From: Kiritimatiellia bacterium
GTDB taxonomy: Bacteria; Verrucomicrobiota; Kiritimatiellia; B70-G9
DNA: 37,402 nt
Assembly (NCBI GenBank): GCA_029934055.1
Contig: JAOZMZ010000012.1
Span: 1 to 37,402 of the forward strand
Direction of reading: 5' to 3'
Shown: positions 12,481 to 20,838 of the stretch, one piece after another
How the letters are laid out: each line of letters begins with the position of its first letter
Numbering within the stretch: the stretch's first letter is position 1
The notes under the pieces: generated by a model
Told to the model about the DNA's origin: nothing
Databases searched by the model: none
What the model saw: the letters and a program-made list of their open reading frames with translations, nothing else
Position numbers and translations under genes: made by a program

Positions 12481-13095
12481 ATGTCATTTGCGAGCGATTT
12501 TTTCAAGGAAGTCGCTGAGGTGGCCGAGCGGTTGCCTGCGGCGGATGTCGAGGCGATCGTCGAGCGTCTGGCTCGCGCACGTCGGGAAGGGGGACGCGTT
12601 TTCGTGCTGGGAGTCGGGGGAAGTGCGGCGGCGGCCTCACATCTGGTCAACGACCTGCGCAAACTCTGCGGCCTGGAAGCCTATGCGCCCACGGACAACG
12701 TATCTGAACTTACCGCGCGCGTGAACGACGAGGGCTGGGAGAGTTGTTTCCGGGAATGGCTGAAGGGCTCCCGGTTGGCGGCGGGCGACGTGGTTTTTGT
12801 TTTTTCGGTGGGGGGAGGGAACATGGAGAGGAACATCAGCGCCAACCTCGTGCGGGCCCTGGAACTGGCCCGCGAGGTGGGGGCCGGGATCGTAGGAGTG
12901 GTCGGCCGCGACGGCGGTTACACCGCGCGCGTGGCGGAAGCCTGCGTGGTGGTGCCGACGGTCAATCCGGAGCACGTGACGCCGCTGACGGAGTCCTTTC
13001 ATGCCGTCGTCGGCCATGCCCTGGTGGCCCATCCGGCTCTGCAGACGAGGGCTGCCAAGTGGGAATCGGAGAGTCAAGGTGACGCGGGCGGGTGA
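12481..13095 (+). CDS. SIS-domain phosphosugar isomerase (GmhA/phosphoheptose isomerase-like)
   Basis: VFVLGVGGSAAAASHLVNDLRKLCG, VVFVFSVGGGNMERNISANLVRAL, GVVGRDGGYTARVAEACVVVP. Confidence 0.85.
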   Translation: MSFASDFFKEVAEVAERLPAADVEAIVERLARARREGGRVFVLGVGGSAAAASHLVNDLRKLCGLEAYAPTDNVSELTARVNDEGWESCFREWLKGSRLAAGDVVFVFSVGGGNMERNISANLVRALELAREVGAGIVGVVGRDGGYTARVAEACVVVPTVNPEHVTPLTESFHAVVGHALVAHPALQTRAAKWESESQGDAGG

Positions 13096-13130
13096 GGTCC
13101 GGCGCGGAGAGCAGGGAGCGGGAAGTGCTG

Positions 13131-13310
13131 TTGAAAACTTCCAATGTTTGGAAAAACTTGAACCGAAAACTTCCAATGTTTGGAAATTTTGACCTGAAAA
13201 CTTCCAATGTTTGGAAATTCTGAACCGAAAACTTCCAATGTTTGGAAATTTTGGACCAGAAACTTCCAATGTTTGGAAATTCTGAACCGAAAACTTCCAA
13301 TGTTTGGAAA
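13131..13310. repeat. Tandem array of six identical palindrome-containing repeats, ~31-bp period
   Basis: TTCCAATGTTTGGAA at 13139, 13171, 13202, 13233, 13264 and 13295 (steps 32,31,31,31,31); invariant block AAACTTCCAATGTTTGGAAA in all six copies, variable linkers. Confidence 0.97.
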
Positions 13311-13403
13311 TTTGCGATCTGAAGACTTCGAAGTCCCGCCGTGGCGGCGGAAGTTTTGCGATGGAATGATTGTTGAACGGGTTGGAGGGTTGGAAGCGAA
13401 GCA

Positions 13404-14171
13404 ATGACGGCATCCGGAAGAGCAGGCGGTGAGGGACGGACGGAGAACGGCGCGGTCCCGGCGCTGGCGGATATGAGGATCAAGGTATTCGCCGACGGTG
13501 CGGACTTGGATTCCATCATCGAGGCCTACCGCGGCGGGTTGGTCAAGGGGTTCACGACCAATCCGACGCTGATGTCGAAGGCGGGGATCACCAATTACAT
13601 GGCGTTCGCGGCGGAGGTGCTGCGGGTGGTGACGGACCTGCCGGTTTCCTTTGAAGTCTTCTCGGATGATTTCGAGGGTATGCGCGAACAGGCGCGCAAG
13701 CTTGCCTCTCTGGCGGAGAACGTCTACGTGAAGATTCCGATTACGAATACGCAGGGACGATCTTCGTGTGCCTTGATTCGCGACCTGGCGGGGGAAGGGT
13801 TGAAGCTCAATATCACGGCGATGATGACGCTTGAGCAGGTACGCGATGTGGCGGGTGCGTTGAATGCGGACGTGCCGGCGATAGTTTCGGTGTTCGCCGG
13901 ACGGATTGCGGACACGGGACGCGACCCGGTGCCCTTGATGGCGGAGGCGCTGGAGATTCTCAAGCCCTTGCCGAAGGCGGAGTTGTTGTGGGCCAGTCCG
14001 CGGGAGGCGTTGAACATCGTTCAGGCCGAGCAGGTGGGATGCCATATCATCACCGTGACGCCGGCGGTGTTGGCCAAGGCGCGGCTTTTCGGCAAGGACC
14101 TGGCCGAGTTTTCGCTGGAGACGGTGAAGATGTTCTACAACGATGCTCTCAAGAGCGGTTTTCACATATGA
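13404..14171 (+). CDS. Transaldolase / fructose-6-phosphate aldolase-like (TalC type)
   Basis: IKVFADGADLDSIIEAYRGGLVKGFTTNPTLMSKAGI, VYVKIPITNTQG, LNITAMMTLEQV, VSVFAGRIADTGRDP; true start may be 13473 (MRIKVFADG). Confidence 0.9.
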   Translation: MTASGRAGGEGRTENGAVPALADMRIKVFADGADLDSIIEAYRGGLVKGFTTNPTLMSKAGITNYMAFAAEVLRVVTDLPVSFEVFSDDFEGMREQARKLASLAENVYVKIPITNTQGRSSCALIRDLAGEGLKLNITAMMTLEQVRDVAGALNADVPAIVSVFAGRIADTGRDPVPLMAEALEILKPLPKAELLWASPREALNIVQAEQVGCHIITVTPAVLAKARLFGKDLAEFSLETVKMFYNDALKSGFHI

Positions 14172-14240
14172 ACATGCTGGGACGGCGGGCCGGCGGCGGC
14201 AATGCCGGCTCTCTCTGACCACTTTGGCGGAGGATGGAAG

Positions 14241-15281
14241 ATGATCATAACGAGGACTCCGTTTCGAATCACGCTCGGTGGAGGGGGGACGGACCTGCCC
14301 TCCTTCTACGAGGAACACGGCGGGTTCATTTTTGCGATGAGCATCAACAAGTACATGTACCTGATGCTCAACCGGCGCTCGGTCGCCGATCGCAAGATCG
14401 TGATTCGTTACAGCCGGGTGGAAACGGTGGACGACATAGAGGAGATCGAGCATCCCCTGGCGCGCGAGGTTCTGCGCATGCACGACGTGCGCGAGAACAT
14501 CGAGCTGACGAGCATCGCCGACATGCCGGCCCGTACCGGGCTGGGCTCGTCGGGATCCTATCTGGTGGGTCTGCTGACGGCGGTAAGGGCCTACAAGTCG
14601 GAACCGGCGGCGGCGGTTGCGGTTGCGGAGGAGGCCTGTCGCATCGAGATGGAGATTCTGCAGGAGCCGGTAGGAAAGCAGGACCAGTACATGGCCGCCC
14701 TGGGTGGATTCCGCGTGCTCGAGATTGGGCGCGACGGACGGGTGGAACAGCGGCGGGTGCCGGTGGATTTCATGACGGCGACGGAGCTGGTATCGAAGGC
14801 GCGGGTGTACTACACGGGGGTCCAGCGTTCGGCGACGGCGGTGCTGAAGGAGCAGGACGAAGCCGCGCGGCGGCGCGACCGCGAGGATCACGCCCGGGTG
14901 GTGGAGAGCCTCCTGAAGATAAAGGAGATCGGCCGCGACATATTGAAGGCTTTCGAGGGAGGCGACCTGGACGCCTTCGGGCGCCTTCTGGATGAGCACT
15001 GGAAGTACAAGAAGCGCATGTCCGCGCAGATCAGCCTGAGCGTGATGGACCGCTTGTACGACGAGGTCAAGAAGCGTTTCGGGGTGTTGGGGGGCAAGAT
15101 CATCGGGGCGGGCGGCGGTGGATTTTTCATGCTGTACTGTCCTGAACGCGGGCGGGAGCTGGATGAATTCATGGCGGGGCACGACATGCCGCGGGTGGAC
15201 TATTTTCCGGCCTTGCAGGGTTCGCGGGTCGTCAGCGATATGACGGCTTTCGATGATTTCGGATGGGCGGCGCGGCCCTAG
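14241..15281 (+). CDS. GHMP-family sugar kinase (HddA-like heptose kinase)
   Basis: MIITRTPFRITLGGGGTDLPSFYEEHGGFIFAMSINKYMYL, GLGSSGSYLVGLLTA, EPVGKQDQYMAALGGF, GGKIIGAGGGGFFMLYC. Confidence 0.9.
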   Translation: MIITRTPFRITLGGGGTDLPSFYEEHGGFIFAMSINKYMYLMLNRRSVADRKIVIRYSRVETVDDIEEIEHPLAREVLRMHDVRENIELTSIADMPARTGLGSSGSYLVGLLTAVRAYKSEPAAAVAVAEEACRIEMEILQEPVGKQDQYMAALGGFRVLEIGRDGRVEQRRVPVDFMTATELVSKARVYYTGVQRSATAVLKEQDEAARRRDREDHARVVESLLKIKEIGRDILKAFEGGDLDAFGRLLDEHWKYKKRMSAQISLSVMDRLYDEVKKRFGVLGGKIIGAGGGGFFMLYCPERGRELDEFMAGHDMPRVDYFPALQGSRVVSDMTAFDDFGWAARP

Positions 15282-19659: not shown

Positions 19660-20838
19660 ATGATGGCGGAGGAACTGGCATACGTACTGATCACACCCTA
19701 CACGATCGGCAAGTCGCGGACCGGCGGGGTGATCGGGAGAATTATCGGCCGGACGGGGCTCGATCTGGTGGCGGCGCGCATGTTCGGACCCAGCCGGAAA
19801 CTGGTGGAGGAATACGCCGAGCTGGTGCGTAACGACCAGGAAAGCGCAGCGGAAGAGCGCGATATCCTGGCGGACTACATTTTGCGGGCCCTGGCTCCGG
19901 ACGAGGCCAGCGGCCGTCCGCGGCGCGTGTTGATGCTGCTTTTTTGGGGCGAGGATGCAATTCGGAAGGTGCGGGAAGTGACCGGCAGTGCTCGTTACAG
20001 CATGGATTCGGCCAGGACCGTGCGCGAGATTTACGGGGACTTCATCACCGGCGGTGGGGGAGAGGTCTTGTATATCGAGCCCGCCGTACTGATCGGAAAC
20101 GGTCCCCAGTCGGTGGCCGCCGGGCTGCGGTTGTGGTCGCGTTACAGCACGCCGGACGGCGGCATAATCATGCAGGGGGTGGATGTGCCTGAAGATGAGG
20201 GGGTCGAGCGGACGTTGGTGATCATCAAGCCGGACAATTTCCGGGTGCCGAGCGTGAGGCCCGGAAGCATCATTGATACCTTTTCCGGGTCGGGCCTGCG
20301 GATCGTGGGCGCCAAGGTGCATCGTATGAGCGTGGCCGAGGCGGAGGAGTTCTACGGTCCGGTGCGCGGGGTCCTGCGCGAAAAATTGCGCGGTCGGGTG
20401 GCCGAGTTGGCCGGAAAGGCATTGCGAAGCGAACTGGGTTGTGAGATTCCGGCGGATTTGCAGGAGAAGATCGGCGAGATGCTTGCGCCGGTGTACGGCG
20501 ACCATCAATTCAACGAGATCGTACAGTTTATGACGGGATACTGGCCGCCGGACTGCGCTCCCGCGGAAAAACAGAAGCCGGGACGCGAACGCTGCCTGGC
20601 GCTGGTATATGCGGGGCCCGACGCAGTCAGGAAGATCCGGGAAATTTTGGGCCCGACCGATCCCCGCAAGGCGCAGCCCGGATCCGTCCGCCGGGAATTC
20701 GGGCGGGACGTGATGGTGAACGCCGCGCATGCCTCGGATTCGCCGGAGAACGCCGTCAGGGAGATGCGGATACTGCGGGTGGATGAGGACACGATCACTC
20801 CTTGGGTGGAAAAGATGGAACTTGTGGAGGGTTCTTAA
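19660..20838 (+). CDS. Tandem nucleoside diphosphate kinase-domain protein (degenerate N-terminal half, canonical-looking C-terminal half)
   Basis: C-terminal half: ERTLVIIKPDNF, VRKIREILGPTDPRKAQPGSVRREFGRDVMVNAAHASDSPENAVREM (catalytic His context). N-terminal half: LAYVLITPYTIGKSRTGGVIGRII and IRKVREVTG without the NxxHxSDS motif. Confidence 0.82.
   Translation: MMAEELAYVLITPYTIGKSRTGGVIGRIIGRTGLDLVAARMFGPSRKLVEEYAELVRNDQESAAEERDILADYILRALAPDEASGRPRRVLMLLFWGEDAIRKVREVTGSARYSMDSARTVREIYGDFITGGGGEVLYIEPAVLIGNGPQSVAAGLRLWSRYSTPDGGIIMQGVDVPEDEGVERTLVIIKPDNFRVPSVRPGSIIDTFSGSGLRIVGAKVHRMSVAEAEEFYGPVRGVLREKLRGRVAELAGKALRSELGCEIPADLQEKIGEMLAPVYGDHQFNEIVQFMTGYWPPDCAPAEKQKPGRERCLALVYAGPDAVRKIREILGPTDPRKAQPGSVRREFGRDVMVNAAHASDSPENAVREMRILRVDEDTITPWVEKMELVEGS

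What the first reader, a model, noticed from the sequence alone, without database searches (positions are those of the whole stretch)
13131..13310. Six-copy palindrome array phased at ~31 bp between SIS isomerase and transaldolase genes
TTCCAA-TGT-TTGGAA recurs six times at 13139, 13171, 13202, 13233, 13264 and 13295. A 20-bp block AAACTTCCAATGTTTGGAAA is identical in all copies while the linkers drift, suggesting the block rather than the whole unit is constrained. The linkers alternate: AAACTTGAACCGAAAAC, ATTTTGACCTGAAAAC, ATTCTGAACCGAAAAC, ATTTTGGACCAGAAAC, ATTCTGAACCGAAAAC. That is a B'-A-B-A'-B order, consistent with growth by ~62-bp dimers. A 31-bp step is close to three turns of B-DNA, so a dimeric protein could bind every palindrome on one face. 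In RNA each unit could fold as TTCCAA/TTGGAA plus AAA/TTT hairpins. The block is AT-rich inside a GC-rich region. It matches no standard mobile element, CRISPR or terminator that I recognise.
Basis: partly seen in the sequence, partly recalled or inferred. Interest (0 to 1): 0.78.

Follow-up and report, generated by a model that had tools for sequence, protein, structure and literature searches.

The report
Helix-phased palindrome arrays across Kiritimatiellia genomes
The six-copy palindrome array is one of about a hundred copies in this bacterium of a 15-base DNA site that recurs up to more than a thousand times per genome in one class of bacteria, with copies spaced by whole turns of the double helix, so it looks like a genome-wide landing pattern for an unidentified DNA-binding protein.

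Summary
The array is real and exact (six copies, steps 32,31,31,31,31). It is part of 111 copies of TTCCAA-NNN-TTGGAA in its own 2.2-Mb genome, against 0 for the reversed control pattern. The class is Kiritimatiellia: 68 of 193 class genomes hold phased pairs (up to 1523). Outside the class I found one genome in roughly 190. Pooled over many genomes, neighbouring sites sit at whole helical turns (2, 3, 4, 5, 7, 8...) and almost never at half turns (123 versus 3, multiples of three turns set aside). The centre base is nearly always G or C. Linkers and outer flanks are mostly unconserved, yet an orthologous array kept its palindromes and phase while its linkers diverged. Arrays favour intergenic DNA near stop codons. 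Some lie over conserved coding sequence without any indel (IDI-2, GluRS), others as in-frame inserts. The array here is a lineage-specific insertion in a conserved SIS-transaldolase-kinase operon. RNA-hairpin, terminator, CRISPR and RAYT/REP readings fail tests. Best reading: paired operator sites for a dimeric DNA-binding protein acting on one helix face, probably chromosome-scale (nucleoid-protein-like). A DNA-uptake-signal role is the main rival. The binder is unknown. No paper in the held library contains the sequence.

The parts
13139..13153 (.). palindrome copy 1, TTCCAATGTTTGGAA
13171..13185 (.). palindrome copy 2
   Evidence: step 32
13202..13216 (.). palindrome copy 3
   Evidence: step 31
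13233..13247 (.). palindrome copy 4
   Evidence: step 31
13264..13278 (.). palindrome copy 5
   Evidence: step 31
13295..13309 (.). palindrome copy 6
   Evidence: step 31
13132..13313 (.). whole phased array (31-bp and 62-bp periods)
13325..13355 (.). GC-rich companion palindrome around CCCGCCGTGGCGG; similar ones lie 34-40 bp from TTCCAA palindromes at two other loci of this genome
12481..13095 (+). SIS-domain (sugar isomerase-like) gene upstream of the array
13404..14171 (+). transaldolase/F6P aldolase family gene downstream of the array
14202..15281 (+). GHMP kinase gene, third member of the conserved operon

Best explanation
The array is one locus of a genome-wide set of operator-like DNA sites. 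SHOWN: a 12-bp dyad (TTCCAA/TTGGAA) with a G/C centre recurs about 100 to over 1000 times per genome in many Kiritimatiellia; sites come mostly in twos to sevens at whole helical turns; palindrome and phase stay fixed while linkers and flanks drift; sites lie mostly in intergenic DNA near stop codons but also over coding sequence. INFERRED: a symmetric (dimeric) protein binds each palindrome, and two or more dimers touch each other on one face of the helix, bending, wrapping or bridging DNA. Because sites are so numerous, are sparser in divergent promoter gaps and are not conserved in position, I think the protein acts on the chromosome as a whole (nucleoid-associated, domain-forming or insulating) rather than switching particular operons. 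Sites appear to arise both by copying of array blocks (clear in this genome, 62/63-bp units) and without insertion within existing sequence, and are then kept by selection on binding.
For: 111 sites in the own genome, control 0. 68 of 193 class genomes have phased pairs, control 0. Spacing of sites with up to 1 mismatch, each exact site counted with its partners: whole turns 2,4,5,7,8,10 = 35,5,39,9,24,11; half turns 2.5 to 10.5 = 0,0,0,0,0,1,2,0,0; adjacent steps 21/22, 31/32, 42, 52, 73-75. Core near 2 bits per base against about 0.1 in linkers; centre base G or C in about 98%. Orthologous 3-copy arrays L125/L114 keep palindromes and phase with diverged linkers. Outer flanks unconserved in 52 pairs of G088. 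Arrays overlie IDI-2 and GluRS coding sequence without indel against PDB homologues. Density in divergent gaps half that of tandem or convergent gaps, and nearer stops than starts, 70 of 104.
Against: No binder identified and no binding shown. Some array-poor genomes sit in the same genus as array-rich ones (G025 against G036; G058 against G038 and G078), unusual for an essential nucleoid protein. Part of the pattern, the in-frame inserts in trpF and an NTP transferase and the operon insertion here, looks like mobile palindromes. Linkers keep some composition bias, so not all constraint is in the palindrome. Many loci were fetched because they hold 31/32 steps, so only the other steps are unselected. 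Single sites without partners dominate in G040.
Confidence: 0.5

Rival explanations
1. DNA-uptake (self-recognition) signal: the palindrome pair is recognised by a natural-transformation receptor, and uptake plus recombination drives its accumulation, as with DUS/USS.
For: Hundreds to over 1000 copies, mostly intergenic but also over coding sequence without insertion, patchy and lineage-specific accumulation. ComEC and DprA are almost universal in the class. Among genomes with a listed ComEC reading frame, those with at least 5 phased pairs have the long form 43 to 5 against 40 to 57 for the rest (Fisher 1.2e-8). In family f7 the genomes lacking a ComEC hit have far fewer pairs (69, 1, 1) than those with it (502, 233, 279). 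Neisserial DUS: about 2000 copies, most intergenic (PMC2397512).
Against: DUS need neither palindrome symmetry nor helical phasing; one DUS suffices (PMC2397512). The ComEC link is confounded by ancestry; G058 has an intact-looking ComEC but 1 pair, and whole families with long ComEC (f2, f18) lack arrays. The extended ComEC C-terminus gave no Pfam lactamase match.
Confidence: 0.2
2. Selfish or mobile palindromic element (REP/BIME, MITE, or Rickettsia-palindromic-element-like) that inserts between and into genes.
For: Lineage-specific insertion in the SIS-transaldolase gap and a roughly 110-bp insert between two operon genes; in-frame inserts in an NTP transferase and in trpF; shared linker blocks between arrays of the own genome. 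RPEs also insert in frame (PMC10969869).
Against: RAYT/Y1 transposase is absent from array-rich G000, G001, G034 and G045. No element ends: 30-bp flanks of 52 G088 pairs are unconserved. Whole-turn spacing and gap-free overlay on IDI-2 and GluRS are not explained.
Confidence: 0.18
3. Sites of the class-wide single-copy Lrp/AsnC regulator, which wraps DNA over sites three turns apart.
For: Archaeal BarR (Lrp family) binds 15-bp semipalindromes with 15-17-bp spacers (PMC10201364), the same geometry. All 55 genomes with at least 5 pairs carry the family; of 29 lacking it, 28 have no pair and one has 1.
Against: Lrp sites have an AT-rich centre, here the centre is G/C. Most Lrp-bearing genomes have few or no arrays. 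In 20 lrp neighbourhoods read, no consistent site is seen. Strong ancestry confounding.
Confidence: 0.07
4. RNA-level element: hairpins acting as terminators or mRNA stabilisers.
For: Each palindrome could form a 6-bp stem; arrays sit close behind stop codons.
Against: Sense-strand substitutions T>C 19 and G>A 1 (pair-breaking) against A>G 12 and C>T 0 (G-U tolerated); neighbour centres not complementary beyond what identical centres show; no terminator or Rfam match; whole-turn phasing is a property of DNA.
Confidence: 0.04

Closest known systems
DNA uptake sequences (DUS/USS) of Neisseriaceae and Pasteurellaceae
   Same: short, stringently kept motif, hundreds to thousands of copies, mostly intergenic but also in genes, lineage-specific
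   Different: not palindromic as single units, no helical phasing between copies; uptake role not tested here
REP/BIME sequences with RAYT transposases
   Same: dispersed palindromes, intergenic, near gene ends, sparser in divergent promoter gaps
   Different: no RAYT in several array-rich genomes; whole-turn spacing; overlay on coding sequence
Lrp/AsnC-family multi-site operators (e.g. BarR)
   Same: 15-bp dyad sites with 15-17-bp spacers, two- or three-turn alignment
   Different: those occur at a few regulated promoters and have AT-rich centres; here hundreds of sites with G/C centre
Rickettsia palindromic elements and MITEs
   Same: some copies inserted in frame inside unrelated genes
   Different: no constant element body or ends; the conserved part is only the phased 15-mers
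HIP1, Noc-binding sites, matS, SlmA sites (from general knowledge, not tested)
   Same: short palindromic motifs repeated around a chromosome, some for chromosome-organising proteins
   Different: not in phased tandem arrays; copy number mostly lower

Membership tests
REP/BIME with RAYT | RAYT (Y1_Tnp, PF01797) gene in the host genome | tested here: not met
   0 hits in array-rich G000, G001, G034, G045
REP/BIME with RAYT | dispersed intergenic palindromes near gene ends | tested here: met
MITE / insertion element | constant element ends, terminal repeats or target duplications | tested here: not met
   no conserved outer flank in 52 pairs of G088
MITE / insertion element | lineage-specific insertion against an empty site | tested here: met
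   SIS-TAL gap and L131 locus; but IDI-2 and GluRS arrays are not insertions
DUS/USS | strong genome-wide over-representation | tested here: met
   111 against 0 control in G000; up to 1339 sites
DUS/USS | promotes uptake of DNA in transformation | not testable with these tools
   needs a competent relative
DUS/USS | host encodes competence machinery | tested here: inconclusive
   ComEC and DprA near-universal in class; long ComEC associated but confounded
Lrp/AsnC multi-site operator | 15-bp dyads at two or three helical turns | tested here: met
   PMC10201364
Lrp/AsnC multi-site operator | AT-rich centre of the site | tested here: not met
   centre base G or C in about 98%
CRISPR array | unique spacers and cas genes | tested here: not met
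   16-17-bp linkers, linker blocks shared between arrays; no match in phages or plasmids; cas genes not searched
Intrinsic terminator | GC stem followed by T run | tested here: not met
   0 found

The most novel reading that the evidence does not exclude
Kiritimatiellia carry a chromosome-wide architecture code: hundreds to over a thousand helix-phased palindrome clusters, renewed by point changes and by insertion, even inside conserved genes, that seed a class-specific filament- or bridge-forming DNA-binding protein. It would be a bacterial chromatin system unrelated to the known nucleoid proteins.
Probability: 0.3. Interest if true: 0.9.

Novelty: new variant of a known kind. Interest (0 to 1): 0.72.

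Why it matters
It is an abundant sequence system found in a third of the sampled genomes of an environmentally common, mostly uncultured bacterial class, and no paper in the held library contains the motif. The whole-turn spacing is a strong, directly testable sign of protein acting on DNA shape at chromosome scale. A site strong enough to be written into conserved genes makes an ordinary pull-down likely to identify the protein quickly. It also warns annotators: the stop-free strand of the array yields spurious proteins rich in FQTLE, SKHWK and PNIG repeats.

Tried and rejected
RNA hairpin/terminator: sense-strand wobble test, centre complementarity and terminator scan all negative. RAYT/REP: transposase absent in array-rich genomes. 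CRISPR: linkers shared between arrays. Phage or plasmid origin: no match; only 3 viral contigs hold the pair pattern. Regulation of this operon: array absent from the same operon in relatives. Auto-regulated binder gene in genomes with very few sites: the isolated sites flank unrelated genes or lie inside genes. Lrp autoregulation: no sites at most lrp genes. A different palindrome in site-poor genomes: none found in G005 and G006; G006 instead uses a shorter core TCCAANNNTTGGA. A periodicity count using 2-4-mismatch partners was dropped because shifted self-matches and excluded windows contaminate it. The ComEC gene tree was poorly resolved and several of its rows were probably wrong reading frames, so it does not settle the ancestry question.

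Full report
OBSERVATION. The window holds six exact TTCCAATGTTTGGAA copies at the stated places, steps 32,31,31,31,31. A 20-bp block is identical in all six. Shuffles give 0.9 loose matches against 7.

IT IS GENOME-WIDE. The own genome (2.2 Mb, 115 contigs) has 111 sites of TTCCAANNNTTGGAA and none of the reversed control. They fall in many arrays, often with alternating 31/32 steps. Among 57 relatives of the class, counts run from 0 to 1339. With the phased-pair pattern 68 of 193 class genomes are positive, with counts up to 1523 and controls of 0. Across the phylum only one genome outside the class has a match, 2 pairs. Named relatives are mostly MAGs labelled Kiritimatiellae, Lentisphaerae or Verrucomicrobia. 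No paper in the library holds the letters, and no paper on the group describes palindromic arrays that I could find.

HELICAL PHASE. Pooled adjacent steps: 31 and 32 dominate, then 21/22, 42, 52, 62-65 and 73-75. For sites with at most one mismatch, whole-turn distances other than multiples of three turns total 123 and half-turn distances total 3 (each exact site is counted with its partners, so a pair can count twice, and longer distances are partly sums of shorter ones). Some loci were fetched with a 31/32 pattern; the other steps were not selected for. Genomes differ in favoured step: 32 in G088, 30/31 and 22 in G065/G085. This is the main reason to read the arrays as protein sites on one face of DNA.

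SITE ANATOMY. The core is TTCCAA-NSN-TTGGAA; the centre base is G or C in about 98% of sites. Flanks extend the dyad differently by genome: AAAAC...GTTTT here, TTTTCCAA...TTGGAAAA in G008/G035. Neighbouring centres are not biased to be complementary. Substitutions in sense orientation do not favour G-U-tolerated changes. No Rfam, promoter or terminator match.

SELECTION. In L125 and L114 the same intergenic place holds a three-copy array in both genomes; palindromes and steps are kept while linkers differ throughout. In G088, 52 pairs have unconserved 30-bp outer flanks and linkers with only a weak AT-edge, GC-centre pattern.

PLACEMENT. With home-made gene calls, arrays of two or more sites are denser in tandem and convergent gaps (about 1.0 per kb) than in divergent gaps (0.5 per kb), and lie nearer the upstream stop than the downstream start in 70 of 104 tandem gaps. 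About 25 of 263 lie deep in genes. In IDI-2 and glutamyl-tRNA synthetase the array overlies the coding sequence with no insertion against solved homologues. In an NTP transferase a six-copy array is an in-frame insert of about 60 residues, and in trpF of G151 the pair lies within the gene. G040 has 71 sites, mostly single, many inside genes.

THIS LOCUS. SIS, transaldolase and GHMP kinase genes are neighbours in most class genomes read, but only this genome has an array between SIS and transaldolase; the gap is short elsewhere. So the array is not a conserved operator of this operon.

CANDIDATE BINDERS AND ROLES. RAYT is absent in four array-rich genomes. Lrp/AsnC is present in all 55 genomes with at least 5 pairs, but also in most array-free genomes, has no sites at its own gene in most cases and prefers AT centres in known members. 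ComEC and DprA are near-universal; a longer ComEC goes with arrays (43:5 against 40:57, Fisher 1.2e-8), and lack of a ComEC hit in family f7 goes with fewer arrays, but ancestry confounds this and there are exceptions. I therefore keep DNA uptake as the first rival. The comEC tree did not settle the question.

CONCLUSION. Shown: a class-specific, genome-wide, helix-phased palindrome system under constraint at DNA level. Inferred: a dimeric, contact-forming DNA-binding protein with a chromosome-scale role. Not shown: the protein, its binding and its effect.

Noticed in passing
window 13325-13355; L141:7974, L147:9546 and 9619: A GC-rich companion palindrome (CTTC..CCCGCCNNGGCGG..GAAG) lies 34-40 bp from TTCCAA palindromes; 4 of 11 copies sampled in this genome are within 150 bp, about 0.3 expected.
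   Followed up: partly
L136:1521-2498, L140:48-2594, L144:10269-10834, L151:76-456: Arrays of the own genome sit in longer intergenic islands that share repeated blocks in shuffled order (about 70-98% identity).
   Followed up: partly
window 13074-15182 (-): One strand of the array is free of stops in all frames, giving a spurious 702-aa ORF with FQTLE/SKHWK/PNIG repeats; such proteins may pollute databases.
   Followed up: no
L338:360-2834 (comEC of G088): The C-terminal end of ComEC in the most array-rich genome itself contains the repeat peptide (DLFQSLEAIAAGISNHWK).
   Followed up: no
G013 (2 contigs, 3.1 Mb): ComEC and a Y1 transposase match carry in-frame TAG codons (3 and 1), which could mean TAG recoding or decay.
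   Followed up: no
window 19660-20838: A 392-aa protein with the nucleoside diphosphate kinase domain matched in two separate stretches, suggesting a large insertion in the domain.
   Followed up: no
G030: 63 Y1 transposase matches in one genome, far more than its relatives.
   Followed up: no
G227 (outside the class): The only other-class genome with the phased pair pattern (2 matches); could be transfer or contamination.
   Followed up: no
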